From a virus, in IMG/VR virus record IMGVR_UViG_3300043568_002015, positions 1-62,080 of that record: 62,080 nucleotides of DNA; one strand, written 5' to 3'. The notes beneath the pieces are model-generated. The model saw nothing but the letters and a program-made list of their open reading frames with translations. It had not been told where the DNA came from and searched no databases. This document shows, piece after piece, positions 3,962 through 24,624 of this stretch. The translations under genes were made by a program, and so were the position numbers. How positions within the stretch are numbered: position 1 is the stretch's first letter; each line of letters opens with the position of its first letter.

Positions 3962-5635
3962 TTACGAATTTAGTTTGACCACGGCTTCGATTTCTCCGAC
4001 GCCGTCGTCTAATTTATCTTCCAATGCTCGACCAATGACGTTCCATGTGGTGATTTCGCTACGTGAACCTGCACGAGCAATACCATTACCAGCACTGACC
4101 AGACGGTCACCTTTGCGGATTTGACCAGTTACTTTAACTGGTACTCGACCTTGTACTGCAATTGGGGGATGTGTTTGGTTGTTACCAGCACCGGAGTTCA
4201 TTAAATAAGCTGCTCTAGTACTTATGACTCCGAACACCTTCTCACTTAATTCTTCTACAGCAGCAGTAATTTCGGCAGATCCGCCCAATTCAACTACTGT
4301 TCCTGGACTGTACTCCCCATCTGCCTCAAATCTTTCAGCCAAGTCAGCATATTGCGCTTGTATGGCCGTACCATATATATTATTCCAATATGCAGTGGGA
4401 CTGCCCAAATTAAATGTCAGATTGGCTGATGGAGTGATGTTACTGGCGATACCGATAAAGGAGGTAGCTAGTATGGTGGACGTATAGTTGACCCCATTGG
4501 CCCAAAAAAGACCACTTGTTGTTACAATATTTCCCAGAGTTGCTGCACCAGTCACTGCCAGTGTACTGCTTAATGTAGCTGCACCAGTCACTGCCAGTGT
4601 GCTGCTCAATGTTGCTGCACCAGTTACTGCCAGTGTGCTGCTCAATGTTGCTGCACCAGTTACTGCCAGTGTGCTGCTCAAAGTGGTTGCACCAGTTACT
4701 GTTGCTGTTCCACCGACGGTGATATTGCCCAATGCATTGACATTACGAACATACAATTGATTCCAATACGAAGTAGTGCTACCTAAATTTTGAGTACCAT
4801 TGGCTGTGGGGCTAATGTTGCTGGAAACATTGGATATAGTCACAGGATTAGCTGTTGGGAAGTTGACATTTCCATTGAATGTCACGTCACCCGTGGCGCC
4901 AGATACGTACAGTACGCTGCGAGGAGTTCCACCCACATTGGCTGTTACATTGAATCCGTAGTTTGTTGTCAGTGCGGTAATTTGCACGTTGCCTGAGCTG
5001 ACACCAACTGTCATATTTGGTGTGGAAATTGCAGTGGGTTCAGCCGTGCTGGTGAAGTTCAGGCCAGGATTGACTTTGGTAATACCACTGCTGGGATATG
5101 TAAATGCTGGAGTAAATACTGTGGCATCTGTACTGAAAATTGCAGCCAATTTGTTGTTGACAATTACGTTGCCCACCGTGTGTGATGCTGACGATGTATC
5201 AGTTGCTGCATTTCCTTGGAAATCAGTAGTAGCTGCACCAATGGGAGTCTGTGGTCCAACTAATGTCCATGCACTGCCAGTGTACCCACGCAATTGGCCG
5301 TTTATAGTATCCCACCATAAATCACCAGCTGTGGGTGCCGCTGACGGGGCTGTTGCGCTGGGAACGGCATGTGAAAATACCTTCCAAGCTGTTCCCTGAT
5401 ATACAGCCAATTGTTTGTTTGTACTGTCCCACCACAATTGTCCTTGCAATGGTACGCTGGGAGCCGTGCTGCTGCTGAAACTCTCCATTATTTTAATGAA
5501 GTTCTCGTTAATGGCTTCGCCATAACTGGTGGCGTTCTTGCCCACCAATGTCAGATTAGTAGTTGAAGTGTCAGTGGTTCCATCTGCTAGAACAGTAAGC
5601 AGATCGCCATTTGTTTTGTTTAGGGTATACGCCAT
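3962..5635 (-). CDS. Tail fibre protein with paralogous N- and C-terminal domains
   Basis: 557 residues. Residues 1-90 (MAYTLNKTNGDLLTVLADGT, then GQLWWDSTNKQLAVY) form a module shared with the fibre at 8341-9621. A second WWDTINGQLRGYTG unit follows. The middle is Thr/Asn/Val-rich and contains a run of 12-residue repeats (GAATLSSTLAVT). The C-terminal ~140 residues (from YADLAERFEADGEYSPGTVV to the end) match the end of the fibre at 10333-11766; the motif pattern resembles self-cleaving or chaperone ends of phage fibres such as Peptidase_G2, but I see no proof of cleavage. A late-promoter-like octamer lies 27 bases upstream. Likely a trimeric receptor-binding fibre. Confidence 0.72.
   Translation of the reverse strand: MAYTLNKTNGDLLTVLADGTTDTSTTNLTLVGKNATSYGEAINENFIKIMESFSSSTAPSVPLQGQLWWDSTNKQLAVYQGTAWKVFSHAVPSATAPSAAPTAGDLWWDTINGQLRGYTGSAWTLVGPQTPIGAATTDFQGNAATDTSSASHTVGNVIVNNKLAAIFSTDATVFTPAFTYPSSGITKVNPGLNFTSTAEPTAISTPNMTVGVSSGNVQITALTTNYGFNVTANVGGTPRSVLYVSGATGDVTFNGNVNFPTANPVTISNVSSNISPTANGTQNLGSTTSYWNQLYVRNVNALGNITVGGTATVTGATTLSSTLAVTGAATLSSTLAVTGAATLSSTLAVTGAATLSSTLAVTGAATLGNIVTTSGLFWANGVNYTSTILATSFIGIASNITPSANLTFNLGSPTAYWNNIYGTAIQAQYADLAERFEADGEYSPGTVVELGGSAEITAAVEELSEKVFGVISTRAAYLMNSGAGNNQTHPPIAVQGRVPVKVTGQIRKGDRLVSAGNGIARAGSRSEITTWNVIGRALEDKLDDGVGEIEAVVKLNS
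4539..4700 (-). repeat. 36-bp tandem repeats coding 12-residue fibre repeat
   Basis: Four nearly identical 36-base units (4539-4574, 4575-4610, 4611-4646, 4647-4682) plus a partial fifth, all in frame in the fibre gene, coding LSSTLAVTGAAT-type units. Units 3 and 4 differ only in their last base on the plus strand, which suggests recent slippage or recombination. Confidence 0.9.
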
Positions 5636-5698: not shown

Positions 5699-6061
5699 TT
5701 AATATGCACTGGTCAGGTTTATCACACCGGGTTGATAGAAAACATGGGTAATTGTGCCAATTAGGGGATTTCTGGTCAGATCAAATGGATCAGGCGGGCG
5801 GTATGTTATTTCCCCCTCATTGAATAGGATTCCAAACATATCATCATAAGTGATGCTCACATACCCGTTACCATAACTGCCGCCGGTGGTCACCACTGGT
5901 GGAGATGCAAGATACCCTGTCGGCAGTACGTCGGTACCATCAGATCCAGTTACGCCATTGTAGTCTCCATCACCGTAGCTACCACCGACCCCATCTGGGC
6001 CACCACCGCCACCACCACCACCGCCATCTGCTGGGTGATTACCGCCTGCTGTTCCTGCCAT
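5699..6061 (-). CDS. Small glycine-rich virion protein
   Basis: 120 residues. After MAGTAGGNHPADG comes an unbroken run of nine glycines and then GPDGVGGSYGDGDYNGVTGS, followed by a non-repetitive C-terminal half (YVSITYDDMFGILFNEGEIT, then DPFDLTRNPLIGTITHVFYQ). Glycine runs of this kind form polyglycine-II helices in distal phage adhesins such as the S16 gp38 protein, so a fibre tip or adhesin accessory role is reasonable. It lies between the fibre gene and the oxygenase gene, with its ATG touching the oxygenase stop. Family not recognised. Confidence 0.55.
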   Translation of the reverse strand: MAGTAGGNHPADGGGGGGGGGPDGVGGSYGDGDYNGVTGSDGTDVLPTGYLASPPVVTTGGSYGNGYVSITYDDMFGILFNEGEITYRPPDPFDLTRNPLIGTITHVFYQPGVINLTSAY

Positions 6062-7104
6062 TATTGTTCTCCTTCAATTTTTAAAAATGTCTTAATATTG
6101 GGGAATGGACCCAGTGCATTTTGGTCATGTAAATTTGCTGCCTCTATCGCACACAGACTATTTAACTGTTTTTGCGTTAAAATTCTCTCTTCGCCGCCAG
6201 CCAGTTGCACGATTGTATTTTTTTTAAGCAGTGCTGTTTCTAGTGTCTGCGGTCGATGCATTTGCCCAAATAATTCAACCAATTCAGTTGCTTCTTCTCC
6301 GATGTATGACACCACACGACTGCGTTCTGATTTCATTATAGTTTTATATTGGAACACGTTGGTGCCAAATATACTATGGAATGCACCGGCTTGGCATACT
6401 GCTGTGTCGTAGTTCTGTAGTTTCAACAGGTCGTATACCCGCAATAAATGTTCCATGAGATTGCCATTTTGGTGGCGAGTTTTAGTTGTACCCAGTTCCT
6501 GCAACGCTGTCTGGATGTTGTCTCTGACTCTGTCTAAATTTATCGGACAAAACTTGAACATCAATGTTATTCTCAATGCTGGACATATTCTGGTCACACC
6601 CTTGGCCACATGAAATTGATTCCCTGGAAAAATTATTCCATGATTAAATTTGGGTATCTCTGCATGTATTATGTCCTGTCCGGCATATATCATGGTTTCA
6701 CCGCCCCACTCTCGTCGCCATTCCTTATTAAGGTACATCACCATTGTACGATCATCTGGTCTGCTGGAATCAGTATGCGGGTATCCTTCGACTCCATATG
6801 TGTGGGCATTGACATAGCACCTGAGTAATTTAACTTCAGGAAAGTACTGAGCACTTATATGATTCCATGCCGATGATATTGGTTCTGGTAACCGATTGGA
6901 CACATCCAGACTGTTTATTATGCCTTCCCTACCTTCCCCAGTAAAGTCTTTATTCCAATGTGGGTATCCCATGCCTTTGTTGGATACCCACCCGTAATGC
7001 CAATGGTGTCCATTGGCATAATCAGCCACATCGTTTGCCAATTTTTCTGGCAAACATGTTTTGATTTTTTGGATATTTTCTGTATTCAAAGTTTGGCTTG
7101 ACAT
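6061..7104 (-). CDS. 2-oxoglutarate/Fe(II) oxygenase (prolyl 4-hydroxylase-like) fused to a C-terminal His-rich domain
   Basis: 347 residues. Residues about 85-190 contain the full Fe(II)/2-oxoglutarate signature: H110 and D112 (YPHTDSS), distal H165 (GNQFHVAKGVTR) and R178 (ALRITLMFKF), 13 residues after H165, as in prolyl 4-hydroxylases. The enzyme would hydroxylate a protein side chain using O2 and 2-oxoglutarate, releasing succinate and CO2. From about residue 205 a second domain starts with H211, H219 (LMEHLLRVYDLL) and H243 (AGAFHSIFGT), which resembles the HD-like DUF6817 family; that assignment is from memory of the motif. Four bases separate it from the upstream Hint adhesin gene, which has a long proline-rich stalk: an obvious candidate substrate. 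It is an enzyme gene inside a structural operon. Confidence 0.8.
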   Translation of the reverse strand: MSSQTLNTENIQKIKTCLPEKLANDVADYANGHHWHYGWVSNKGMGYPHWNKDFTGEGREGIINSLDVSNRLPEPISSAWNHISAQYFPEVKLLRCYVNAHTYGVEGYPHTDSSRPDDRTMVMYLNKEWRREWGGETMIYAGQDIIHAEIPKFNHGIIFPGNQFHVAKGVTRICPALRITLMFKFCPINLDRVRDNIQTALQELGTTKTRHQNGNLMEHLLRVYDLLKLQNYDTAVCQAGAFHSIFGTNVFQYKTIMKSERSRVVSYIGEEATELVELFGQMHRPQTLETALLKKNTIVQLAGGEERILTQKQLNSLCAIEAANLHDQNALGPFPNIKTFLKIEGEQ

Positions 7105-7107
7105 GAA

Positions 7108-8337
7108 TTAACTTTCATTATGCACCACCACACCGTTGGCAATGTAACGATCATTTCCTGCAACGTTCAACCAGAAAACCTGTTTGGACTTTACATTGAT
7201 GGTCGCGAGCTTTTCTATGGGTATGTATACTAATTCATTATTGACCCAGTGGGCCAGATTCAATCCTTCCCGCAGTGGAGTCAATGGTTTGAAATTATTG
7301 CTGGCCAATATCACCTGATACTGCACTGGCTCGGTCATCTGTAAATATTCAATATCATATACTGCCCATCCCTGATCAGTGAACACAGCATGATTACTGG
7401 TCATAAAATAATCACTGCCATTCATGCTGACTAACTCAACATCGCCAATCCTGGTGCGATTCCATATCACTGACACTACACCTGCATCGCTTCGCACCAG
7501 ATCACCCACTCTGACAGATGATATGGATTTTAATGTTCCGTCGGCCATGAGAACTTTAGTTGATCCAATAAAGCAACCAGCATCTCCGGCCCCGGCATCA
7601 CCGCTGCCAGCACCACTGTCACCACATGCCCCAGGATCGCAATCACTACCAATTCCATCGCCACCGCCAGAATCCCAGTATTCTTGCGGAGGCTCATATG
7701 GAGGGTCCGCTGGTGGTTGTGGCGGTGGTTGTGGCGGAATATATGGGGGTTGTGGTTGCTCTGGTTGTGGATCAGGAGATGGGCCAGGTCCTGGATCGTC
7801 AGCTGGTGGAGGTGGGTCTGGTGGAGGAACATAACCCTGCCCTCCGCCGCCACCACCTGCACCACCTGCAGCTACTACAATATTACTGCCTTCAACACTG
7901 ATGTATGTGGCTCCACCGCCACCGCCACCACCACCCGAATAACCAGATGCACCTGGATTTCCGCCAGCACCACCACCAGTATCGGCACCACCAAATCCAG
8001 GAAGTCCAGCGCCGATGCCAGTGCCAGTATATCCATCACCACCTCGTCCACCTATACCAATTTGAATTTGTTGATCAGCACCCAATGCCACGATGCCGGT
8101 TATTTTATGTCCGGATCTGCCTGTGTAGCCAGTCAGTCGGTCATTTCCACCATTACCGCCTCCGGCACCAATGGCAATCACAACAGCTGGCAGTTGCGGG
8201 GGCCAAAATTGTCGCCACTCCCCGTCGATTCTAGTCCATCCAGCTAAAATTTTAGTGGCAACACCATTGACTATGACGGCTGGTCGGCGCCACGGTCTCA
8301 ATCGCCCATCTTTTGCAATGAAAACGCCCCGTGCCAT
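7108..8337 (-). CDS. Gly- and Pro-rich adhesin with C-terminal intein-like (Hint) domain
   Basis: 409 residues. Residues 1-50 (MARGVFIAKDGRLRPWRRPA) are an anchoring domain. Residues 53-168 are glycine-rich with ATYISVEGSNIVVAAGG, like the Gly-rich domain of ALK-type proteins. Residues 170-218 are a stalk about half proline (PPPDPPPPADD). From C255 a Hint domain runs to the end: C255FIGSTKVLMADGT (block A), T313SNH316 (block B) and terminal VVVH406N407. Only Glu and Ser follow the Asn, so there is no Cys/Ser/Thr to accept a splice; bacterial intein-like domains of this kind usually cleave rather than splice. Self-cleavage or attachment through C255 is inferred. Neighbours are the fibre at 8341 and the oxygenase at 6061. 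Confidence 0.82.
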   Translation of the reverse strand: MARGVFIAKDGRLRPWRRPAVIVNGVATKILAGWTRIDGEWRQFWPPQLPAVVIAIGAGGGNGGNDRLTGYTGRSGHKITGIVALGADQQIQIGIGGRGGDGYTGTGIGAGLPGFGGADTGGGAGGNPGASGYSGGGGGGGGATYISVEGSNIVVAAGGAGGGGGGQGYVPPPDPPPPADDPGPGPSPDPQPEQPQPPYIPPQPPPQPPADPPYEPPQEYWDSGGGDGIGSDCDPGACGDSGAGSGDAGAGDAGCFIGSTKVLMADGTLKSISSVRVGDLVRSDAGVVSVIWNRTRIGDVELVSMNGSDYFMTSNHAVFTDQGWAVYDIEYLQMTEPVQYQVILASNNFKPLTPLREGLNLAHWVNNELVYIPIEKLATINVKSKQVFWLNVAGNDRYIANGVVVHNES

Positions 8338-11805: not shown

Positions 11806-14800
11806 TTATGATCCTCTGAGGAATACTGCTTGCACAGTATCACTATTTTCTAATCCTGACCCTTCCAAGAAATCTGCGCTATATGTTGTGGTAATATATG
11901 CATCTGCTTCGTTTGTCATAAAATCACCTGAATCAGTTATAAAAGAACGTTGAGCTGTATCTGGATTTAAGTTCAGCCATGTGCCTAAATGCACATTTCC
12001 GTTGGTCGATCCAGAGCTGGGAATTAATGATGTAACTCCACTGTCTTCTACTGTGCTTCCAGCTATGTGTACCAATGGAGTTCCGGTCTTATCTGCTCCA
12101 CGACGTATTTGTGCAAGTGTGTTGGCACTAACTTGTGTCACATTGGCTGCAATGTTGGCAAATGTTGTGGAATATACATTGCCCGATGTCAAATATATGT
12201 TTCCGCTGTGCGTAATCAAGCTGCCAGTGCTGATAACAGCATTGGCTGCCCAGGCAATCTTGCTTTCAGTTGCATAGTTTCTCCAATACACGATCTTTTC
12301 ACTGTTGATGTATATAACCCCAGGCGTGTTATATGCAATATTTGGTGTTGAAAATACTGATGCATTAGCAACACTGATGCTGGTGTCAGTCAGATTTAAA
12401 TTAGCAGACAGAACGCTGGTATTAGCAATCTTGTAATACTGTGGCCAGAGACTGGCATTGGTGCCACTACTGTTGGCAATGGTGTTGGATACCATACGGT
12501 AAGCCACTATCTGTGTATTACTGAACAGTTTGGTATAAACTTTAATACCCAAGTGGTCAAATGTTTGTCCTGGTACCAATTCCTCAGGTGCATGACTACT
12601 GAAAGTATCATAGTAAGCACCACCATCAATATTGATATCTTCAGCGCGAGTACCCAGTGCTGAATCCATGTAAGCACTCTGTATACTGCTGTCCAGGTTG
12701 ATTGGATCATTGTCATCATAATATCTCAGTGCAACATTACTGCCATGAGCTATGCTAAACGTCGTACCAGCAATCTCCGACAATTGCAGGCGATCATTGG
12801 TGATGTTAACTATCTTGAATGTTAAATTAGCTGATACCGGCAAATCTAGATTGGATACTGTCAAATATTCACCAGTGGCATATTCTGTTGTGGTAAAATC
12901 AAATACACTGATGTTGCTGCTGATCAATGACAGATTATTGTGATGATAACTCAGTATGTTACTGGTGATGTTGCTGCTGAAGGCATTGAACTTGACACCT
13001 TGAACCTGGACTCCAGGATACTCGACACCGTATACTAATTTGTGCAGATCTCGTCCTGGCATTCCCTCACCAGGGGCATAGTAGGCCATGATGCGATCAT
13101 TGGCATTGTCGAAATCACCAGCACCAATCTTGGTATATTGACTGTAGTCAAATATGTTGTTGACGGTTGCTGGACGAACATTGGATGCTGTGCCATTGAT
13201 TCTGATGTTTCCACCACGAGCGTAATATGCACCAGTCAGGTTGCCCACTGTAATGACGTTGGCCCCGGTGATGGCTGTAACCACTCGAGCGTTACCATTG
13301 GCATTGGCCTGTGTGATATAATCACCCACATTGGCTGTGATATTGCCATTCAACTTCATAGTGGTTGTACTGTATACGTTGGCTTTGGCTTGCCATGCTG
13401 CCCCTGCGTATCGTACATTGGCATTGGCTGCAATGGTGACATTGCTGGCCCAATCAATGATGCTGCTGGTGTAGCTGACACGGTCAAACTTTAAATTACT
13501 ATTGAATGTGCGTACCTTGTTGTAGCTCTTGTCTATAAATTGCGTATAGCTGTTGACTGCCGTCACACTAGTGGCCAGATTGCTATCTGCCAGATACAGC
13601 AGGTTACCATTGTTAAATGTACCAGCAGTATCAATTAACGATATAACGTTACCATTGATAACGTCGGCATATACCGTGCCTTGACTGACAGTATTGGGCT
13701 GGAATACCACATTACCAGTGTACACTGTGACATTGCTGCTGATGGTCAAGTCAGTGGTGGGCAGGCTGTCTATATAGTATTCACCAACCAAATGAGCATA
13801 CGCCAATGCCCCAGATCCTGTACCATTGATGTTAATGGTTGGCTGGCTGGTGAACCCAGTACCAGGTTTAATTATCTCGAATCTGCTGATGGTGTTGGTA
13901 AGGACATCTAAATGAGCTATGACATTAGCCCCGGTTCCGCCTCCACCAGTCACTGTGACTTGTGGGACTTCGTAGTAACCACCAGACTGTAATGTATATG
14001 AATTTATGTCGCCTACATTCACCTGCAGGTTAGCACCATTACGAAAAATGTAAGCATTGTCTATACTGATGGCAGTGACATTGGCTGCTAAGTTGGCACT
14101 GTCGCGATACAGGTATGTATTGGCGGCTGCTGTTGTATCAAATGCACCAACCACATTGCTGATGGTTACTATATTACCGGTGGATGTATAATATACATCA
14201 CCGTAAGCACCAGTACTCAATTGGGTCACTACATTACCAACCCAGACATTGGTATTGGCACTCAGTGTCAATTGTTCAATGATATTGGTGAAAGCGCCAG
14301 TGACCTCCTGCAATGTCATGATGGTATCCACGCTGTTGATGTATACTCGACCATTGGCTCCAGTGCTGGGCTGTGTGACATAATCGCCAGCATTGACTGT
14401 TGTTGCTGCGTTCCATAGACCTAGAGTTATTACAGGAATATCCTGGGTATCACCGGCATTGACCACATCGATTGAACCAATTCCATAACCATAATTGGCA
14501 TACCAATCTTTATAGATAGCAGTGGTAGATACAGTGGTCACATCCTTGTCCATGGTCAGATCAGGACTACGGTATTTCCCTAATTCAGAGTCGTATGTGC
14601 TGGGTAAGTCAAAGTCAGTTACGTCATGCGTATATGTATCTGACCCCTGGTAATCCAACAGATACTCACGTAGGCTGGTACGATAGGGCTTGACCTCATT
14701 GATATAGCTTTCGTAATAAGTCTGGTTGTCTCTGATGTAGTTGGGGAACTGTTCCAGTTTACGCAATTGATGAACAATGCTGACAAAGCTGGTCTTGAAA

Positions 14801-17800
14801 ATCCAATCCACTGTCTTCTGTTCAGTCAAAATGTAATTGATCAAGAAGAAGAACATTTCGTTGAACTTGCCAGCCAATCGTTCTCTAAATATATCGTTTT
14901 GTAAGGTGTCAAATATAATACGGATTTCGTATTGTGACTCTGGGCTACCGTCGTATAGATTACTGTTTAACTGTATGGTGCCGGATTGTACGCCCACCAG
15001 ACTTTCTGTCAGGGTGTCATCGTATCGGTACACTTCCCATTGGCCACGGCCGTTGTTTAAAACTTTGACAGTATTTCCTGACGACAATGTCAATGTCTGT
15101 ATGTCTGCAATGGTAGCCACTTGATACGTAGGCTTGACTGTATATTCGTAAGTGCTATCATACCAGTCAATTTTACTCCAATAGAATGGAGTATAATAGC
15201 TCTGTGTTGTGGTCAATGTAAATGCCGCAGTTGCCCCTGAAATAGCAAGGGTGTAAGTTGACCATAGTCCCTGTTGGGTTTCATCATTGATTACCAACAC
15301 CACATAACCAGACTGTAATCCATTTACGTCAATATAACCCAATTCTTCGTAGCTGTCCACAGTCAAGTCGTAATCTTCAGCGATTGGTAGTGCTTCTGAA
15401 GAATACAGACGGTCAATAATAAAATCATTGACCACTGGTACTGTCAGCAATACGGTATTGACATATGCCACCCAGCTCTTGACTGCTGCAATGCGATCAA
15501 CAAATATAGTTTGTCCACGATCGATGCCTACGTTGCTCTGGATAGGCAGTGTGGTGTCCGGGACTGCACGATTATACTGATCCCGCCCAGCCAGGCTGTC
15601 ACGTAATTTATTGACTATGCGTTCAGGTATATCGCTATTGGCATTGCCCTCTTGAATTAATTGATACTCACTGTGAATAATGTTGTCGTTTTTAACATAA
15701 TCATAATCCATGTGCAATACTGTGGTGTTGCCAGTGATGTAGTTGCTGATGTTATACAGACTAATTGTGTCGTTACGAACCACAGCAGCGTAAGGAATAC
15801 CCTGCGTCTGAGGGCTTCTGATCATATCTTCCAGGGTAACGATACTATTTCTGCGAGCAGTAATATTTGTGTCCACACTGGTTTTATTGATTACCCAATA
15901 ATAGTAACGACTGCGTATGATTTTTGTAGCAGGATCAACATATGTCTCTGACACAAATGCGCTGTTGTCGATTGGATACAGCGGAGTTCCGTCACCAGTA
16001 TACTGACCTGGTAATTCAGAACTGACAATCCATTCTGCTATCTGTATTTGACTGTCCGGGAACATGGTGGCCCAATTGCTGGCTCTATAAGGTAATGATC
16101 CTTGTTCGTAATCCAGGAATCTTACCAGATCCAAATTCCACCAGGTTTTACCAACTTGTGTGGCTCCCCAGGTGTGGTCTAAATTAACGCTGACGTCATT
16201 ACTGACGTAATCTGTAGCACCAGCTGAGTTATACACAGCCGGATCATATGCTGTCCAGAAATCGATATCCTGTTCGGCTTGACCCAACAATTTACCTTTG
16301 GCTGGATCAATGTGATCCAGGTTAGTAAGTATGGAATTAGACACTGTATCGAATAGATACATACGTGTAATGCTGTCTATATCCACTTTAGGAGTCTGCG
16401 AGCTTATGGTATCCCATCCAACATTACCAGTAAAGTTATAATAGGTATAGTAAGTACCAGCATTGATGGCACGAGTCAACGCACCAGTTTCTGGATCAGC
16501 ATATATAACCGTGTTGTCATCACCTGGCGCACCAATCAATAAAGTATCATGGCTGCTGGCCAGACTACTTCCAAATTGGTCGTATGCAGTTAATATAGAA
16601 TTTTGTAGTCGTTGTACAAAAGTCATTTGATCTTGAGCGCCACCGCTCAAAGCGCCACTGACCAATCCATATACATATACTGCACCAGCTGATGGTATAG
16701 GATCCAGGAATGTTGTTGCACCCTGATCCAATAATGTAGTTTCAGCATCAATTGTTAAATTATTATAGGTAGTACTACCAGGACCCGACACTATTAGTGA
16801 ATTTCCGCTGGGATTGATTGATAATTGCGTACCAAATCCATTGATGTCATCTTGGCCCAGATGTCGTATAGTTTGTAGGTTTGTGTATACAGTAATACCC
16901 AGGTTGGCAAATACATTGCTGTTATTGCCAGGTGTCAATACCAATTTGTCCACTGCACTGACGATGTTACTGGTAATGGTTATTGTGTCATACAATGTAA
17001 CAGTGGCAGTGATGCCAGCAATATTTGCACTATTAATATTAGCCGTAATGGATTGTATGTTACCCACTGTGCTGCCCACGCTGTTGGCGCCAAATGTAAT
17101 CAATCGCCCATTAATACGGAAACTATCGCCCACCTTAACCAATGGCAATGTAGCTGTGGCCAATACTTCCCCATATCGTTCACCAGTATTAACAAAGCGA
17201 TAAACCAACCCGCTGTGGTAACCAGGCTCACTGTAGCCAGGACTACTGACATATATATCTGCGTCGTTACCACTGATATCAGCAGCACCACCAAAACCAG
17301 CACCACTAGTCAGGCTAGGTGCTGCTAGTTTTTCCATCAATTGGAACTTATTGGTCTCAATTGTTACGTCCATGCCCACCATTGGGGCTGTGGTAAAGTT
17401 AATGGCTGTAGCATTGGATGTAAATCCAGCAGTTTGTTCAACACCGTTTATGCCAACACGTACTGTGCTAGAGGTAATTGGTTGTTGTGTAAAGAATGCA
17501 GTACGCCCATTGGCGGTAAACGTTTCTATACTGCGATCATATACGTATACTGCACCAGCAGCACTGATGCTGTTGATTGCTTCATAAGGTGCACTGATTA
17601 TAGTCTGGCTGGCATCGCTGGTTGTCTTGACGATGCTACCAAATGCCACGTTGGCATAGCTGCCCACAGAAATAGTATTTGCATAGGTGTAGTAATTGTT
17701 GGCATTGGCGTGGAATACCTCCACATTACCAGAATTGGGTGCTCCAACAAATAACCATGTATTGTCTGAACTAGCACTAATACTATAACCAAATTGGTTA

Positions 17801-20800
17801 CCAGTATTACTTCCCCAGTTACTGGTCAACCGTTGTATCTGTGTAACGGTTGTATTACCATTAAAGCTATAAACATAGACACGGCCATATTGAGCACTGG
17901 TACCAGGAGCACCTACATATAATAAGTTGCCGCGGATATCCAAACTGCTACCAAATCTAGTTATAGTATCAGTTGTACCAATATTAGCTATTTGTGACAG
18001 CACATTACCATTGGTCACGTTGGCCACAAATACTGCCACGTTGCCATTCATTACATTGGGCATACCTGCGGCAGCAAAGTTACCATCACTGCTGATAGCA
18101 GCAACAGAACCATAGCCTGAATCGCTGACGTAAGTGTTGCCTGTCAGATTCATACCTGAAGTAGTTAAGTTAGCTGCTGACCATGGCGTACTCTTGTTGT
18201 ACACAGCCCAGACACCATCACCGTTGTCATCTACCCACAGTTTGTCATTGTCCTTCCAGGTTTTGGCAGGAGTAATATCAGCCAAGTTGGTGGGTGATTT
18301 TAAACGTTGACTTTGCAGTCTCATAATTGGAGCCAGACCAGTGACAGTCTGTGCATTCATTAGCTGATCCAATGTACTGCCAGTCATGATAATATTGATA
18401 CTGACTGCTGAATTGATATTTATTACTTGATAGAATCCATCAAATCTGTCGTCAAAACCTTTTATTACTATTAGATCGCCGTAATATAGATCGTGTGATT
18501 TTTTAGTTGTGACTTCTACAGAATTGTCCACACCGTAGGTCATACTGATGATTGCTGCACCAGTCTCATACACACGATAAACATTCCAATTGCCACCAAA
18601 ATCTTTGGCACACCAAATTTTATACCCAATAGTGACTTGACTCAACTTACTGTTTAATGAACGGTAATTGCCGATGTCGTATATGGTGGCATCGACATCG
18701 TTTTCGTTGACATAACCAGCCGCAAGTATATCGTTTTCGTAGATACTAGTGTCATCCCGATTGAGATAAATTTCTGGAGTATACGACGATGTATTTCTAT
18801 ACAGCAAATCTGGAGTGATGCCAATTATGTTATCGGTGCTGGATCCATTATTGGGCAGCAGCGTAAATGTAGCAGGATCACCAGTAAACGAAGCTTCATC
18901 CAGCTGTAATTCCACATACTGATTGTTTTCAATAGCACCGTATTCTCCAGTGCGTAGAGCCCATTCTTCATACAAATTAATAGTACTGGTTACGCCGTTG
19001 AATCCAGCAGCAGTAAACGCATTGATGGCGTTAATGGTGCCCTTTTCTTTAATGAATCCCTGATAAAATTTAGCCTGTGTGGTTTTGTCGATACCAAAAT
19101 CTGTCATGTATTGACGTGGACTGAATCCAATCATACCTTGACTAAAATCTTCCATGCCCAGTGTGGGTTCAGGATTGTCTATATCAAATACGTTGTTAAA
19201 ACGTTGAGCATTGTAGCTGAAGTTGGGCAGCAGACCGGACTTGACCTGATCCCCAGGTATTTGACGCCAATCATTAATAATGAAATCTGGGGTAGCCACT
19301 AAATCACTCAATGCTGCATAATACAGTCCCTTGAAGGTAACCAGACTGCCTTTATTGTAATCCACTCCAGGCAACCATTCATCAATTATAGGGTTGTTGT
19401 AGATAAATCCTGGGGGATTCATTTCCCCACGCCATCCTCCAGTTTTACTACCCACCAATTTTAGTCGGTATTGTCTATTACCCAATTCAGGTTTGTAGAT
19501 GATGTCGTTGAATACTGTTGTATTATCGAATATCAATACATGCTCGTACTCCACAACGTTCAATGTGGCCAGTGCAATGGTCTGGCCTTGGTTAGCTGTT
19601 ACTGTGAATCGATTGTCTGTTCTGGTCACAGTAAATTGATTTTTACGAATAAATCCAAATCCAGTGTCTAGAATTCTAGCACCATCTGGAGTATTGACAA
19701 TCGCGTCCACTGTGCCACTATCAACAGTCAATGTTAATTTGTTCAGTATGGGGCTAAGAACCAAGATGTTGGTCTCTTTCCAACCCTGTTGGCTCCATAA
19801 CAGGAATTCTCTGATACTTAATTTAAAATCTCGTTGTATTTCGTAATCACGATCAAACTCAGTCATAACCATACCAATGGCACGTAAATAACGCTCATAG
19901 CTGATTAAGAAATCCACAATCTGTTGCTTGTTGGTGAACTCATACCCATATGGTACTGTTAGTTTATACTGTTGAAAATCGTTATAAATCACACCAGTGT
20001 CGGAATTGACTTTAATGCCATAGGCATTATTGTTGGCTAAACTTGGTATAATAGTGAAGTATGGATTATCCTGATCGTATCCGCTGACTGTGTATCCATT
20101 GGCACTTTTCTCTACAATAACTGCACTATAGACTATGGTATTAATGGGCGTAGACTTGTACAATGCCAAATTATAATTTTCAGCTGGTATAACTACACCA
20201 CTGTTGGTGCTGGTGGGACTGCTTTGCTCAGCAATGACTTCCAACAATGTTGGATCGCTGAATCCGGCCATCTTGTAAGCCAACTGAACTTTTACATTAT
20301 TAAAGTATGTGGTTAATTTGGTAACCGGATCAATACCTTGATTTTTTAAATAATCAGCAACCCAATTGATATACCCAGCAGAACGTACCACTGTTAGACC
20401 AGTGGCATCACCATTAATGTCTATTTCTGTGCTAGTGATTCGCCGCAGGGTATCTGATAGTACGTATTGTCCTAAAACGGTATTTTTGTAGTATCTGGTG
20501 ACATTCATCAATGTACCAAAATAATAACCAGGTTGGCTGATGGCAATCGCCTGCTGTAATGCAAAAGGAAAATCGCTACTACGTCTCCAGGCTGTTTCTA
20601 CTGGTCCCTGATCACCAACAGCATAACTAGCGTTGGCGTCGTTGCTGTTAAATCCGCGCACCAGAAATTGATCTGGGCTACGCAATTGTCCGAATTCGTC
20701 CACTGGTATAAAGTTGAGCAATACAGGTCGAGCAAAACGACTGTCTACACCAGCACGTGGACCGGCGTGGATATACCCACGTGACAGTTCTTCCCACAAT

Positions 20801-23800
20801 ACCAGGTTACCACCAGTGTATGGTGCTGGGCCGTATCTTGTTTCCCACCAGTCTGGCTGTTCTGAAAATCCCAACATTTCCCACGGACATTGGTGCGGGC
20901 GATCAGTGTCGAACATGTATTTAAATATGCTGCGCCATGCTCCAGTCAATTGCTCACCGTTGACACTGTCACGGAATCGACGATAGTTCCAGGTGAATGG
21001 GTCACCTGCGTCAAAATAGGTATTGTTAGTAAAATCTACACGATTGCTACCAGCCCATTTAAGGAAGGGCGATGTCAGCAAACGATTGAATTCGCTGTAT
21101 GAATAATTCTGTGTACGGAATTTTCCAGGTATGTAATTGTGCAGATCAAAATCATTGGCTGTATAATCAGCCTTGATGTTATTGTAAATACGTTTTTCAA
21201 ATTCCAATAATAAATCATCACGGAAGTCACCAAACGCTGGCGTGATACTACCATCATGGCCTTGTATCACCATCACTGGTTCACGGTATGTGTTGTCCAG
21301 ATACATACTGGGGCGGAATTTAGGATATAGACCCAACTTAGTGGGAGTTTCTGGAATGTAATTACCGTCAGTATTTTCGTACTCTACTATGGTCAGAGTG
21401 TCGCCAGCATTCAATGGATAGTCAGCTGCAATAGTGAACCCAGCTCTGGTTGTATCAAAAGTGTAATCCAATCCCTTGACCAATTGCACATTGTTAATGT
21501 ACACCAATGTGCCACGATTACTTAGAGCAAAGTCATCAAAAATACTAGTTATCTCATAACCACGTATCTCAGCATTGACTATGGGATATTCGATGACATT
21601 TTTGGTATCTCCGTACGGTACCATGTCGCTGTAATACCATGGAAATGTACGATTTTTTACTTCGTTAATTTTCTTTAGTATAACATCAGTTGTGACCACA
21701 GCGTCAGTCAAGTCTAGCCCCGACATTGTGGCGGATAATTCCAGAAACTTATTCTTGATGTTACTATACTCGTGACGAGCTAAATTCAATCCTTTAAGGA
21801 AGTTTGTGTCGTGATCCACCAGGAATAATTCACTGTATAAAACTGGACTAGCATGTTGAACTATGCTGCCGCCCTGTTGTTTAACCGGAACATCTCTGAT
21901 ATTATTGGATCCCAGCGCATTTCCCACAATACGATTACTATTGCCTACAATCGTAGTAAGATGATTTCGTAATTGCCCCAAGGTTAAATCTGTAAAGTTT
22001 TTATTTTCAGTATTGTAATCTAGATTCTTGGGAACTTCGTAATATCCCAAGCCACTGACAGTATCACTGTATATCAAAATATCATAGTGATCACCCAACG
22101 CTGGTGAGCTGTTGGTTATATCAACAAACTTTCTGACACCAATGGTCAATAAGGAATATTGGCTGACACTAAGTTCTATACTATTTTTGTAAACTCGGAA
22201 ATAAGGCAATTGTCCAGATGCATTGGCTGTTATATCGAAAGGAATACCTGCTGTGGTACCATTGTATACACTCTCGATAATTTGAAATTGCTTGCTGGGC
22301 TCGGAGGTAGTGGTCCAGATATTTCTAGGTGTATACTGGGTAAGACTGATGTTTTTACGCAACAGGTTGCGATTTAATGATGTATTACTGTTATCAGTGT
22401 AACTAAAAACATCAGTGTCAAAATTGTTTACAAATTGAATATCACCAATTTGATTGAAATTTCTATAACTCAGTGGGAATCCCAGAACACTATCGTTATT
22501 GCCATTGCCTAATTTATAGCTGAAAATCTTTGTACCAGTAAAATCACTATCAGGATAGATGGTGGCGTCTGTTATGCTATAGCCATTGGTGTCAATGACG
22601 TCAAATAATGGTGTTTGATTGATGCCTGTTTTGGCTTGCGATTCAATCCAGTCAGCGCCATCGTAATAGAACTCTTTGCCCTGGCTAGTGCCCTGCAATA
22701 CCACTAGATTGTTATACGGCTGAATTTCATAGTCATCAGCCAATACTAAATTAATAATATTAACACCGTTGATCAGCTCAATATTAATGGTATAGATTTT
22801 ATTTGTTATGTTAGGGTCAAAATCATTAGCGAATACCACACGCATGCCATCTTGCAGTGTTACACCATCCAATACGTATGTTGTCTCTAGTTCAATATCT
22901 TCAAATGCGTCGATCGGGTCCAGATATAGAATGTCAATGGGAGCCTTGGCCACACGACCAAAGTTGAATAATTGTATGTCAGCATCAAATTCAATGATGG
23001 GTCTGTTGGCACGTGACGCTTGATCCAAGATCAGCTCAACATTATTGTAAGATGCTGTGGATATTATTACATCTATATGGAACCATCGATTGCTACGACT
23101 CCAGCCGTTTAAGTCCATTGAACCACGATTAATCGTGATGTAATCCTGCGACTCAACTCCATTTACAGCATAATCCTCTGGAGTCAAGAAGTCGGTGATT
23201 GGTAGTAATTTAATGCCTGTACCCACACCATCAACGTAGTATATCTTACTGTCGTAGCTGTTGGGAATGGCACTGGTGTCGAATCGCACTTTTAATCCAT
23301 TGGTAAATTTTACACCATTGGGACTAGTATAATTAGTGCGTCCTAAAATTTCATTGTCGACATTGATGGTGCTGTTGCTAACCGAAACTACGTCCATGGA
23401 TCCAACCATTGTCGCAATGGCTCCGTCCTGGTAATATAACACTGCCGATGGCGCTGTGATATCAGGGACCGGCAAGAATGCTTGTGCATCAGGATCTAAA
23501 TAGTATGTAAATTCACCGCGCTCTACTCCACCCTTGACATACACCTTTTGGTTGTTGGCTACGGCAATATTAGTTTGTAAATCAATGGTGAAATCACCAG
23601 ATCCATTGGCCACCAGATTGATTCTCCACACACCACGGCGATCTTCTACTGGCACTACCAGTGCTGGATCAATGGGAGTATTGATTCCACTTACGTTGCT
23701 GGAAATAGTCCATTGGACGTCGTCGATGTCCTGGTTGGTGAAGATAAATGTCTTGTTTAGCAATTGACTTTTTAAGCCGTCAATTCCTCCCAGGGAATCA

Positions 23801-24624
23801 GTTAAGGTACTTAATAGTTGACCCTGCAACTGTCGGTATCCTAAATTTGTACTGCCATCAACTGTGGCAACCAGACTCATACGTGTGTAATAGTCTTGTG
23901 CAGTGGGTTGTGGCACACGGAAAGTAATGATACCCTGATCAGTTCCGTTGTTTTCCACGCCCACTATTGTGCGTGTTGTAAGGTTATTTTGTCGTGGTCG
24001 ACGACCGCTCGTGCCAGGGTAACTCTGAATCCAGAATGGATATCCAGGTTGGTCTACCACAAATGTATAAATGCCACCATGTGCTAATTTCAGCGTGGGA
24101 TTATCCACAGTACCATAACCATCAATATTGTATGTGCCACTGACTGGATCACGTGTCACTGTAAATTGGCGTTCAGTATCGACGTTGGCGCCATATATAT
24201 CCACTGCGTCTGGTCCGTCGGGCAACCAATAATATTGGTTGAAGTTAACCAATTTATCAAAATCAAATAGACCATCAAAACTATAACTTTCGCTGGCAAA
24301 TAGACGACTATGATCGTCTATCAATCCACCATCGTGTTTAATCTGCTGCAATAGGTCAATGTAGCTACTGAAAAAATTCACATTACCATTGGCATCTTTT
24401 ACTACAACACTGGGCTCAAGTTGGTAATTTCGACGCAGAGCAGAGGGCTCTGGCTGATAATTATCTGAGCTTTTGAATGTGGGAGCATTGGTTCGGCCAA
24501 CATACCCATTGATACGCTGTAGGTTGGGAGGAGTTACCAGCTGATCCAGCGTTGCGTTTAGAAACTTTTGGTTAGTATCTGTACGGAATACGCTGGGTAA
24601 AAAATTAATGGTTTTAATGGCCAT
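11806..24624 (-). CDS. Giant virion structural protein (4272 residues) in the gp7 position, with FG-GAP-like propeller
   Basis: The longest gene of the window, 4272 residues, four times T4 gp7 (1032). It directly follows gp6 on the minus strand, the place held by baseplate wedge gp7 in T4, so a baseplate-anchored role is likely although clear gp7 identity cannot be shown by eye. The N-terminus is MAIKTINFLPSVFRTDTNQK. Residues about 2160-2700 hold repeated integrin-type FG-GAP units (SDSGYGSVAAISSDGNFAAA, FGYSISASSDNTWLFVGAPN, FGSSLASSHDTLLIGAPGDD), implying a beta-propeller. Residues about 3400-3810 contain at least four copies of a module of the form GDYVTQPSTGANGRVY...ITGAF. Similar giant structural proteins exist in T4-like aquatic phages. 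It probably forms a large baseplate periphery or fibre. Confidence 0.8.
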   Translation of the reverse strand: MAIKTINFLPSVFRTDTNQKFLNATLDQLVTPPNLQRINGYVGRTNAPTFKSSDNYQPEPSALRRNYQLEPSVVVKDANGNVNFFSSYIDLLQQIKHDGGLIDDHSRLFASESYSFDGLFDFDKLVNFNQYYWLPDGPDAVDIYGANVDTERQFTVTRDPVSGTYNIDGYGTVDNPTLKLAHGGIYTFVVDQPGYPFWIQSYPGTSGRRPRQNNLTTRTIVGVENNGTDQGIITFRVPQPTAQDYYTRMSLVATVDGSTNLGYRQLQGQLLSTLTDSLGGIDGLKSQLLNKTFIFTNQDIDDVQWTISSNVSGINTPIDPALVVPVEDRRGVWRINLVANGSGDFTIDLQTNIAVANNQKVYVKGGVERGEFTYYLDPDAQAFLPVPDITAPSAVLYYQDGAIATMVGSMDVVSVSNSTINVDNEILGRTNYTSPNGVKFTNGLKVRFDTSAIPNSYDSKIYYVDGVGTGIKLLPITDFLTPEDYAVNGVESQDYITINRGSMDLNGWSRSNRWFHIDVIISTASYNNVELILDQASRANRPIIEFDADIQLFNFGRVAKAPIDILYLDPIDAFEDIELETTYVLDGVTLQDGMRVVFANDFDPNITNKIYTINIELINGVNIINLVLADDYEIQPYNNLVVLQGTSQGKEFYYDGADWIESQAKTGINQTPLFDVIDTNGYSITDATIYPDSDFTGTKIFSYKLGNGNNDSVLGFPLSYRNFNQIGDIQFVNNFDTDVFSYTDNSNTSLNRNLLRKNISLTQYTPRNIWTTTSEPSKQFQIIESVYNGTTAGIPFDITANASGQLPYFRVYKNSIELSVSQYSLLTIGVRKFVDITNSSPALGDHYDILIYSDTVSGLGYYEVPKNLDYNTENKNFTDLTLGQLRNHLTTIVGNSNRIVGNALGSNNIRDVPVKQQGGSIVQHASPVLYSELFLVDHDTNFLKGLNLARHEYSNIKNKFLELSATMSGLDLTDAVVTTDVILKKINEVKNRTFPWYYSDMVPYGDTKNVIEYPIVNAEIRGYEITSIFDDFALSNRGTLVYINNVQLVKGLDYTFDTTRAGFTIAADYPLNAGDTLTIVEYENTDGNYIPETPTKLGLYPKFRPSMYLDNTYREPVMVIQGHDGSITPAFGDFRDDLLLEFEKRIYNNIKADYTANDFDLHNYIPGKFRTQNYSYSEFNRLLTSPFLKWAGSNRVDFTNNTYFDAGDPFTWNYRRFRDSVNGEQLTGAWRSIFKYMFDTDRPHQCPWEMLGFSEQPDWWETRYGPAPYTGGNLVLWEELSRGYIHAGPRAGVDSRFARPVLLNFIPVDEFGQLRSPDQFLVRGFNSNDANASYAVGDQGPVETAWRRSSDFPFALQQAIAISQPGYYFGTLMNVTRYYKNTVLGQYVLSDTLRRITSTEIDINGDATGLTVVRSAGYINWVADYLKNQGIDPVTKLTTYFNNVKVQLAYKMAGFSDPTLLEVIAEQSSPTSTNSGVVIPAENYNLALYKSTPINTIVYSAVIVEKSANGYTVSGYDQDNPYFTIIPSLANNNAYGIKVNSDTGVIYNDFQQYKLTVPYGYEFTNKQQIVDFLISYERYLRAIGMVMTEFDRDYEIQRDFKLSIREFLLWSQQGWKETNILVLSPILNKLTLTVDSGTVDAIVNTPDGARILDTGFGFIRKNQFTVTRTDNRFTVTANQGQTIALATLNVVEYEHVLIFDNTTVFNDIIYKPELGNRQYRLKLVGSKTGGWRGEMNPPGFIYNNPIIDEWLPGVDYNKGSLVTFKGLYYAALSDLVATPDFIINDWRQIPGDQVKSGLLPNFSYNAQRFNNVFDIDNPEPTLGMEDFSQGMIGFSPRQYMTDFGIDKTTQAKFYQGFIKEKGTINAINAFTAAGFNGVTSTINLYEEWALRTGEYGAIENNQYVELQLDEASFTGDPATFTLLPNNGSSTDNIIGITPDLLYRNTSSYTPEIYLNRDDTSIYENDILAAGYVNENDVDATIYDIGNYRSLNSKLSQVTIGYKIWCAKDFGGNWNVYRVYETGAAIISMTYGVDNSVEVTTKKSHDLYYGDLIVIKGFDDRFDGFYQVININSAVSINIIMTGSTLDQLMNAQTVTGLAPIMRLQSQRLKSPTNLADITPAKTWKDNDKLWVDDNGDGVWAVYNKSTPWSAANLTTSGMNLTGNTYVSDSGYGSVAAISSDGNFAAAGMPNVMNGNVAVFVANVTNGNVLSQIANIGTTDTITRFGSSLDIRGNLLYVGAPGTSAQYGRVYVYSFNGNTTVTQIQRLTSNWGSNTGNQFGYSISASSDNTWLFVGAPNSGNVEVFHANANNYYTYANTISVGSYANVAFGSIVKTTSDASQTIISAPYEAINSISAAGAVYVYDRSIETFTANGRTAFFTQQPITSSTVRVGINGVEQTAGFTSNATAINFTTAPMVGMDVTIETNKFQLMEKLAAPSLTSGAGFGGAADISGNDADIYVSSPGYSEPGYHSGLVYRFVNTGERYGEVLATATLPLVKVGDSFRINGRLITFGANSVGSTVGNIQSITANINSANIAGITATVTLYDTITITSNIVSAVDKLVLTPGNNSNVFANLGITVYTNLQTIRHLGQDDINGFGTQLSINPSGNSLIVSGPGSTTYNNLTIDAETTLLDQGATTFLDPIPSAGAVYVYGLVSGALSGGAQDQMTFVQRLQNSILTAYDQFGSSLASSHDTLLIGAPGDDNTVIYADPETGALTRAINAGTYYTYYNFTGNVGWDTISSQTPKVDIDSITRMYLFDTVSNSILTNLDHIDPAKGKLLGQAEQDIDFWTAYDPAVYNSAGATDYVSNDVSVNLDHTWGATQVGKTWWNLDLVRFLDYEQGSLPYRASNWATMFPDSQIQIAEWIVSSELPGQYTGDGTPLYPIDNSAFVSETYVDPATKIIRSRYYYWVINKTSVDTNITARRNSIVTLEDMIRSPQTQGIPYAAVVRNDTISLYNISNYITGNTTVLHMDYDYVKNDNIIHSEYQLIQEGNANSDIPERIVNKLRDSLAGRDQYNRAVPDTTLPIQSNVGIDRGQTIFVDRIAAVKSWVAYVNTVLLTVPVVNDFIIDRLYSSEALPIAEDYDLTVDSYEELGYIDVNGLQSGYVVLVINDETQQGLWSTYTLAISGATAAFTLTTTQSYYTPFYWSKIDWYDSTYEYTVKPTYQVATIADIQTLTLSSGNTVKVLNNGRGQWEVYRYDDTLTESLVGVQSGTIQLNSNLYDGSPESQYEIRIIFDTLQNDIFRERLAGKFNEMFFFLINYILTEQKTVDWIFKTSFVSIVHQLRKLEQFPNYIRDNQTYYESYINEVKPYRTSLREYLLDYQGSDTYTHDVTDFDLPSTYDSELGKYRSPDLTMDKDVTTVSTTAIYKDWYANYGYGIGSIDVVNAGDTQDIPVITLGLWNAATTVNAGDYVTQPSTGANGRVYINSVDTIMTLQEVTGAFTNIIEQLTLSANTNVWVGNVVTQLSTGAYGDVYYTSTGNIVTISNVVGAFDTTAAANTYLYRDSANLAANVTAISIDNAYIFRNGANLQVNVGDINSYTLQSGGYYEVPQVTVTGGGGTGANVIAHLDVLTNTISRFEIIKPGTGFTSQPTININGTGSGALAYAHLVGEYYIDSLPTTDLTISSNVTVYTGNVVFQPNTVSQGTVYADVINGNVISLIDTAGTFNNGNLLYLADSNLATSVTAVNSYTQFIDKSYNKVRTFNSNLKFDRVSYTSSIIDWASNVTIAANANVRYAGAAWQAKANVYSTTTMKLNGNITANVGDYITQANANGNARVVTAITGANVITVGNLTGAYYARGGNIRINGTASNVRPATVNNIFDYSQYTKIGAGDFDNANDRIMAYYAPGEGMPGRDLHKLVYGVEYPGVQVQGVKFNAFSSNITSNILSYHHNNLSLISSNISVFDFTTTEYATGEYLTVSNLDLPVSANLTFKIVNITNDRLQLSEIAGTTFSIAHGSNVALRYYDDNDPINLDSSIQSAYMDSALGTRAEDINIDGGAYYDTFSSHAPEELVPGQTFDHLGIKVYTKLFSNTQIVAYRMVSNTIANSSGTNASLWPQYYKIANTSVLSANLNLTDTSISVANASVFSTPNIAYNTPGVIYINSEKIVYWRNYATESKIAWAANAVISTGSLITHSGNIYLTSGNVYSTTFANIAANVTQVSANTLAQIRRGADKTGTPLVHIAGSTVEDSGVTSLIPSSGSTNGNVHLGTWLNLNPDTAQRSFITDSGDFMTNEADAYITTTYSADFLEGSGLENSDTVQAVFLRGS

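What the first reader, a model, noticed from the sequence alone, without database searches (positions are those of the whole stretch)
6061..8337. Prolyl-hydroxylase-like enzyme next to a proline-rich stalk adhesin
The 2OG-Fe(II) enzyme has every catalytic residue (H110, D112, H165, R178) and sits four bases from a gene whose product has a proline-rich stalk of about 48 residues. Inference: the phage hydroxylates its own adhesin stalk, like collagen or plant extensin, to stiffen it or to allow O-glycosylation; glycosyltransferase-like genes lie 3.5 kb downstream on the same strand. I know of no described phage system like this.
Basis: partly seen in the sequence, partly recalled or inferred. 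Interest (0 to 1): 0.75.

Follow-up and report, generated by a model that had tools for sequence, protein, structure and literature searches.

The report
Phage enzyme for glycine-aspartate adhesin tails
A virus of bacteria carries an oxygen-using enzyme that probably chemically modifies glycine- and aspartate-rich tails of its own surface proteins, much as some bacteria seem to modify their antibacterial peptides, rather than hydroxylating proline as first thought.

Summary
In detail: an intact 2OG-Fe(II) oxygenase lies 3 bases after a gene with a Pro-rich stretch (27 Pro in residues 170-218). Missed were a second enzyme domain (DUF6817, HD-like), a Gly/Asp-rich segment after the Pro stretch, and a C-terminal Hint (intein-like) domain on the adhesin. 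In relatives the recurrent neighbour feature is a Gly/Asp low-complexity tail, not proline: in the window's clade 11 of 23 phage loci have a strictly Gly/Asp-rich neighbour, 18 a Gly-rich one, 3 a Pro-rich one; background genes 1, 2 and 2 of 615. In bacteria the same two domains, mostly as adjacent genes, sit in microcin- or RiPP-like clusters near precursors with such tails (8 of 13 loci; 0 of 17 with DUF6817 alone; fresh genomes 2 of 2 against 0 of 9). Best reading: a peptide-tailoring oxygenase that oxidises Asp (or Gly) in tails of virion proteins. Prolyl hydroxylation is not supported as the general role. Against: many phage Gly/Asp repeats lack the enzyme, several enzyme clades lack such neighbours, and no chemistry is shown.

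The parts
6061..7104 (-). Oxygenase gene: 2OG-Fe(II) domain fused to DUF6817, 347 aa (P0001)
   Evidence: Pfam 2OG-FeII_Oxy_3 and DUF6817 above cut-off; model pLDDT 91.6
6535..7104 (-). 2OG-Fe(II) domain (residues 1-190), prolyl-hydroxylase fold, ligands H110 D112 H165, R178
   Evidence: VIA-align Z 17.2 to 4j25 (Pseudomonas putida P4H), 17.0 to PHD2 3oui
6100..6519 (-). DUF6817, HD-like domain (residues 196-335) with invariant H211, H219, N324 and near-invariant H243-S244
   Evidence: model pLDDT 93.6, Z 12.0 to small alarmone hydrolase 7qoe
7108..8337 (-). Adhesin-like gene (P0002, 409 aa): Gly-rich domain, Pro-rich stretch, Gly/Asp segment, Hint-like domain
7684..7830 (-). Pro-rich stretch, residues 170-218, 27 Pro of 49
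7576..7674 (-). Gly/Asp-rich segment, residues 222-254, proposed target
   Evidence: sequence; same relative place as the Gly/Asp C-terminal tails of L083, L055, L105, L072 and L033
7111..7575 (-). C-terminal Hint (intein-like) domain, C255 to H406-N407
   Evidence: Pfam Vint 26.5 bits (cut-off 27), Intein_splicing 24.5 bits (cut-off 35.8); TSNH and VVVHN motifs by eye
5699..6061 (-). 120-aa Gly/Asp-rich protein; start codon overlaps the oxygenase stop
   Evidence: same place as small Gly-rich genes in L033, L055, L072, L083, L086, L105
8341..9621 (-). Tail-fibre-like gene upstream of the adhesin
   Evidence: PHROG tail fibre matches

Best explanation
The enzyme is a peptide-tailoring oxygenase of the kind used on ribosomally made peptides. 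Its 2OG-Fe(II) domain oxidises residues, most likely Asp (to beta-hydroxy-Asp), in Gly/Asp-rich low-complexity segments of the virion proteins encoded next to it. The fused HD-like DUF6817 domain either binds this substrate or performs a second step. In the window the modified segment lies between a Pro-rich spacer and a Hint domain, which may then cleave itself off and leave the Gly/Asp segment as the new C-terminus, as it is in related phages. Shown: domain content, conserved catalytic residues, predicted fold, and the association with Gly/Asp tails in phages and in bacterial microcin- or RiPP-like clusters. Inferred: that the tail is the substrate, that Asp is the residue, the role of DUF6817, the Hint cleavage, and any use of the tail in host contact.
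For: Adjacency in the 81 phage loci (of 82) that have a same-strand neighbour: window clade 11 of 23 strictly Gly/Asp-rich and 18 of 23 Gly-rich; other phage clades 2 of 58 for each; background genes 1 and 2 of 615. Several different phage gene orders: tail protein before the enzyme, or Gly/Asp protein after it, in unlike phages. Bacterial loci with both domains: strict Gly/Asp ORF within 5 kb in 8 of 13; DUF6817 alone, 0 of 17 (p 2.2e-4); the part fetched after the criterion was set gave 2 of 2 against 0 of 9 (p 0.018). L154 is a microcin-like cluster: precursor weakly like MccV and ending in DGG repeats, C39 exporter, HlyD, TolC-type protein. L310 has a Gly/Asp precursor-like gene beside a radical-SAM-like gene (by eye). 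Tail codons are mixed, and the L153 and L156 precursors differ by 33 synonymous and 19 nonsynonymous codons, so these look like real genes. The two domains occur split or fused, which points to a joint function. Weak similarity to YhhC, a peptide-modifying 2OG family, in 3 of 43 members.
Against: The reverse test is weak: of 79 ORFs with D-G4-D-G4-D in 80 listed phage stretches, only 6 have DUF6817 in the DNA held. L192, L260 and L265 carry a protein like the L081 Gly/Asp protein with no enzyme after it, and L240 and L209 one like the L010 protein with a phosphoribosyltransferase-like gene in the enzyme's place. Fifty-six of 58 loci in other phage clades have no Gly/Asp neighbour and often sit among replication or packaging genes, named by eye. 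The nearest relative, L002, has none. L150, L151/L315, L152, L155 and L188 fail the strict criterion. In L306 the Gly/Asp segment is internal to a very large protein 1.2 kb away. No activity, residue or product is shown.
Confidence: 0.55

Rival explanations
1. The enzyme hydroxylates prolines of the adhesin stalk.
For: Prolyl-hydroxylase fold, Z about 17; 27 Pro in 49 residues next door; Pro-rich stretches also adjacent in L078 and L086 and two genes away in L083, enriched over 2 of 615 background genes.
Against: Only 3 of 23 clade loci have a Pro-rich neighbour, and 0 of 58 in other clades; tails of L081, L153, L154 and L156 have no Pro; nearest relative L002 has no such neighbour.
Confidence: 0.1
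2. The enzyme acts on a host or general target (translation factor, nucleic acid, metabolite); its place beside Gly-rich virion genes is a hitchhiking effect in one phage clade.
For: Other clades sit among replication, recombination and packaging genes (by eye); the closest folds include a prolyl hydroxylase solved in complex with EF-Tu; a review links cyanophage 2OG genes next to UvsX/UvsY with repair (PMC2984593, passages); Gly/Asp repeats are common without it.
Against: The association recurs in bacterial clusters that hold no virion genes, including a small fresh sample, and in several gene orders.
Confidence: 0.22
3. The pair performs oxidative backbone chemistry on Gly (alpha-hydroxylation, then cleavage or amide formation), not Asp hydroxylation; DUF6817 does the second step.
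For: Gly is as constant as Asp in the tails; a 2OG hydroxylase followed by an HD oxygenase is the PhnY/PhnZ and TmpA/TmpB logic (recalled); weak fold match to PhnZ Z 7.5 and TmpB Z 7.0; another alpha-ketoglutarate-dependent peptide enzyme cleaves backbones (PMC12636437, title and abstract start in the listing).
Against: DUF6817 has His-Ser where HD enzymes have His-Asp (S in 41 of 43) and fits alarmone hydrolases better (Z 12.0).
Confidence: 0.13

Closest known systems
Prolyl hydroxylases of the PHD2 / Pseudomonas P4H fold
   Same: Predicted fold and the HxD...H...R iron and 2OG site
   Different: About 14-17% identity in the aligned part; extra DUF6817; Pro-rich partner not conserved
2OG-Fe(II) oxygenases of T4-like cyanophages (phrog_274, labelled DNA endonuclease V)
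   Same: 2OG domain matches, E 1.4e-20; 98 phage records match some part
   Different: No phage record covers 80% of the query; in S-RIM50 the DUF6817 match is a gene of its own
Peptide-tailoring 2OG oxygenases (NCBIfam FlmC, YhhC)
   Same: All 43 homologues hit FlmC and 3 hit YhhC; bacterial pairs sit with radical SAM genes or C39 exporters. I found no paper on FlmC, so that it tailors peptides is a guess
   Different: FlmC score 81.6 against a cut-off of 240; DUF6817 partner; phage virion proteins as presumed substrate
Class IIb (siderophore) microcins
   Same: L154: microcin-like precursor with low-complexity Gly-rich C-terminal tail, C39 exporter and fusion protein; class definition from PMC10233263, passages
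   Different: Tail is Gly/Asp not Gly/Ser; siderophore-attachment genes were not looked for; modification unknown

Membership tests
Prolyl hydroxylase (P4H/PHD type) | HxD...H iron ligands and 2OG-binding Arg | tested here: met
   H110, D112, H165 43 of 43; R178 41 of 43
Prolyl hydroxylase (P4H/PHD type) | Double-stranded beta-helix fold of the PHD group | tested here: met
   predicted model, Z 17.2 to 4j25, rmsd 2.9, 158 aligned
Prolyl hydroxylase (P4H/PHD type) | Proline as substrate | not testable with these tools
   indirect: Pro-rich neighbour in 3 of 23 clade loci, no Pro in several tails
DUF6817 (PF20680) | Score over the curated cut-off | tested here: met
   74.6 against 25.2 bits
HD-domain diiron oxygenases (PhnZ, TmpB) | His-Asp (HD) metal-binding pair (recalled definition) | tested here: not met
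   position is His-Ser; S244 in 41 of 43
Small alarmone hydrolases (SAH/Mesh1) | Fold | tested here: met
   Z 12.0, rmsd 3.1, 127 aligned to 7qoe; helical folds score high easily
Small alarmone hydrolases (SAH/Mesh1) | His-Asp catalytic pair (recalled definition) | tested here: not met
   His-Ser instead of His-Asp
FlmC family (NF052475) | Score over curated cut-off | tested here: not met
   81.6 against 240 bits
Hint / intein domain (in the adhesin) | Profile match and terminal Cys ... His-Asn | tested here: inconclusive
   Vint 26.5 bits, cut-off 27; Cys255 and His406-Asn407 present
Class IIb microcin (bacterial locus L154) | C39 exporter and membrane fusion protein near the precursor | tested here: met
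   Peptidase_C39 ABC transporter, HlyD, OEP
Class IIb microcin (bacterial locus L154) | Gly/Ser-rich C-terminus carrying a siderophore | tested here: inconclusive
   tail is Gly/Asp-rich with a few Ser; the modification is not testable here

The most novel reading that the evidence does not exclude
Phages and bacteria share a Trojan-horse ligand: the 2OG-DUF6817 enzyme turns Asp residues of Gly/Asp tails into iron-chelating beta-hydroxy-Asp, a siderophore mimic. The tail lets phage adhesins, and microcin-like bacterial peptides, dock on iron-uptake receptors. The Hint domain exposes it in this phage.
Probability: 0.1. Interest if true: 0.95.

Novelty: new variant of a known kind. Interest (0 to 1): 0.7.

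Why it matters
I know of no phage that tailors its receptor-facing proteins with a peptide-modifying oxygenase. If right, this gives a function to part of the large unassigned pool of phage 2OG oxygenases, a role for DUF6817, and a common chemistry for microcin-like peptides and phage adhesins. It would also mean that receptor binding by some phages cannot be understood from sequence alone. The claim is directly testable by co-expression and mass spectrometry.

Tried and rejected
Relatives of the adhesin itself: no match in the phage collection and none in viral contigs. The first genome scan, with a two-sequence alignment, found none. Glycosyltransferase role of downstream genes: no Pfam or structure support. 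Defence-system role: only a generic 2OG model matched. Literature: no paper holds DUF6817, none cyanophage plus prolyl hydroxylase, none FlmC plus oxygenase; broader searches listed nothing that describes this system, judged from titles and abstract starts. Passages were read in PMC10233263, PMC2984593, PMC9602691 and PMC12636437. The library holds open-licence papers only. The reverse test shows that Gly/Asp repeats alone do not predict the enzyme.

Rows dropped or partial: one search kept the best 80 of 457 relatives, so the sample leans to near relatives; one search listed 80 of 105 stretches; 125 fusion ORFs were reduced to 82 by near-identity, 81 of which had a same-strand neighbour. DUF6817 hits in loci L168, L170, L171 (weak or truncated) and L297 (under cut-off) were not followed. 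The 13 bacterial loci count L155 and L190 once and L151 and L315 once. The GD label on the tree was partly set by eye and included weaker Gly-rich cases; the L191 tail was found only, in the same turn, and is not in the tree's label. The strict adjacency count misses L079, whose Gly/Asp neighbour overlaps the enzyme ORF, and L041, whose held DNA ends 51 bases after the enzyme.

Full report
What is there. The oxygenase ORF (6061-7104, minus strand) and the adhesin-like ORF (7108-8337) are intact and 3 bases apart. Pfam finds 2OG-FeII_Oxy_3 and, after it, DUF6817, both over cut-off. The adhesin has a Gly-rich N-terminal part (weakly like the Gly-rich domain of ALK/LTK), a Pro-rich stretch, a Gly/Asp-rich segment and a Hint-like C-terminal domain starting at C255. 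A small Gly/Asp-rich gene follows the oxygenase.

The enzyme. A 43-sequence alignment of fusion homologues keeps H110, D112 and H165 in all rows and R178 in 41. The AlphaFold model is confident (mean pLDDT 91.6). The first domain fits Pseudomonas putida P4H and human PHD2 (Z about 17). DUF6817 alone (pLDDT 93.6) fits HD hydrolases of the small alarmone hydrolase type (Z 12.0) better than PhnZ (7.5) or TmpB (7.0), but has His-Ser instead of His-Asp. In some phages (L035, L039, L049, L057, L066) and in most of the bacterial loci the two domains are separate adjacent genes.

The neighbours. A motif scan gave 67 phage stretches and an alignment scan 80 rows, partly the same contigs. After removing near-copies, 82 fusion loci remain. 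In the window's clade the adjacent gene is strictly Gly/Asp-rich in 11 of 23 loci and Gly-rich in 18 of 23; Pro-rich in 3 of 23. In other phage clades the figures are 2, 2 and 0 of 58. Genes more than 2.5 kb away give 1, 2 and 2 of 615 (a first version with other thresholds is). The Gly/Asp part is often the very C-terminus of the gene just upstream (L005, L019, L081, L084, L087, L088, L090), or internal in the gene just downstream (L010, L015, L047, L059). L083 has a protein of similar design (Pro-rich, then Gly/Asp) that lacks a Hint domain and ends in the Gly/Asp tail, with two genes between it and the enzyme. The L055, L072 and L105 proteins end in Cys after the Gly/Asp part.

Tree. In a 95-row tree the window falls in a 24-row clade (support 100/99), 20 rows of which I had labelled as having a Gly/Asp or Gly-rich neighbour. 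A second clade (10 rows, support 99/97) holds L138 and nine bacterial loci; 7 of its 10 rows bear the label, 8 with L191, whose tail was read; L152 and L188 do not. L019 is the only other labelled row. The other large clades have none. The label was partly set by eye.

Bacteria. Thirteen bacterial loci hold both domains. A strict Gly/Asp ORF lies within 5 kb in 8 of 13 (L153, L154, L156, L184, L189, L191, L306, L310); not in L150, L151/L315, L152, L155, L188, although L150 and L155 have short precursor-like ORFs with FGGDGGW. Of 17 loci with DUF6817 alone, none has one. The part of this sample fetched after the criterion was fixed gives 2 of 2 against 0 of 9. L154 is a microcin-like cluster. 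L150 has a radical SAM gene most like cyclophane-forming maturases and an exporter most like bacteriocin exporters, both scores below the curated cut-offs. L189 has a tail protein like that of L005, so it is probably a prophage. DUF6817 is rare in bacteria: 6 of 297, 5 of 199, 8 of 299, 7 of 398, 5 of 399 and 8 of 65 genomes in the groups searched, which overlap in part.

Against. Gly/Asp repeats are widespread in phage proteins without this enzyme, with direct comparisons in L192, L260, L265, L240 and L209. Many enzyme loci lie among replication or packaging genes, as judged by eye. Contigs are fragments, so absence is weak evidence in both directions.

Mechanism and rivals. The simplest account of a peptide-hydroxylase fold that follows Gly/Asp tails across unrelated gene clusters is that it oxidises those tails. 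Asp beta-hydroxylation is my first guess because Asp is constant in the tails and its hydroxylation by 2OG enzymes is established (AspH, PMC7251097, abstract start in the listing); Gly chemistry is possible. The resemblance to siderophore microcins rests on L154 and on the review passages. That beta-hydroxy-Asp is an iron ligand of siderophores, and the proposal that phage tails may use iron to reach iron-uptake receptors, are recalled and were not checked (paper not held).

Noticed in passing
window 7111-7575: Hint-like domain appended exactly after the Gly/Asp segment; related proteins in L055, L072 and L105 end in a Cys at the corresponding end of the tail.
   Followed up: partly
L240 1-654; L209 3749-4429: A phosphoribosyltransferase-like gene occupies the slot before the Gly/Asp protein that is held by the oxygenase in L010 and relatives (Pfam score for L240 under cut-off; L209 by eye).
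   Followed up: no
L310 6471-8285: Radical-SAM-like gene (by eye) beside a 259-aa Gly/Asp-core precursor-like protein and the 2OG/DUF6817 pair: a possible RiPP cluster.
   Followed up: partly
L072 5797-9249: The protein before the oxygenase carries a subtilase domain as well as a Gly_rich_2 domain.
   Followed up: no
phrog_274, cyanophage records: A family that matches 2OG-Fe(II) oxygenases is labelled 'DNA endonuclease V' in PHROGs and in several phage records, apparently a mislabel.
   Followed up: no
window 11806-24624: A single 4272-aa open frame next to the tail-fibre genes.
   Followed up: no
window 3962-5635: C-terminal match to the Peptidase_G2 autoproteolytic domain, under cut-off; similar C-termini by eye in L083, L086 and L105.
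   Followed up: no
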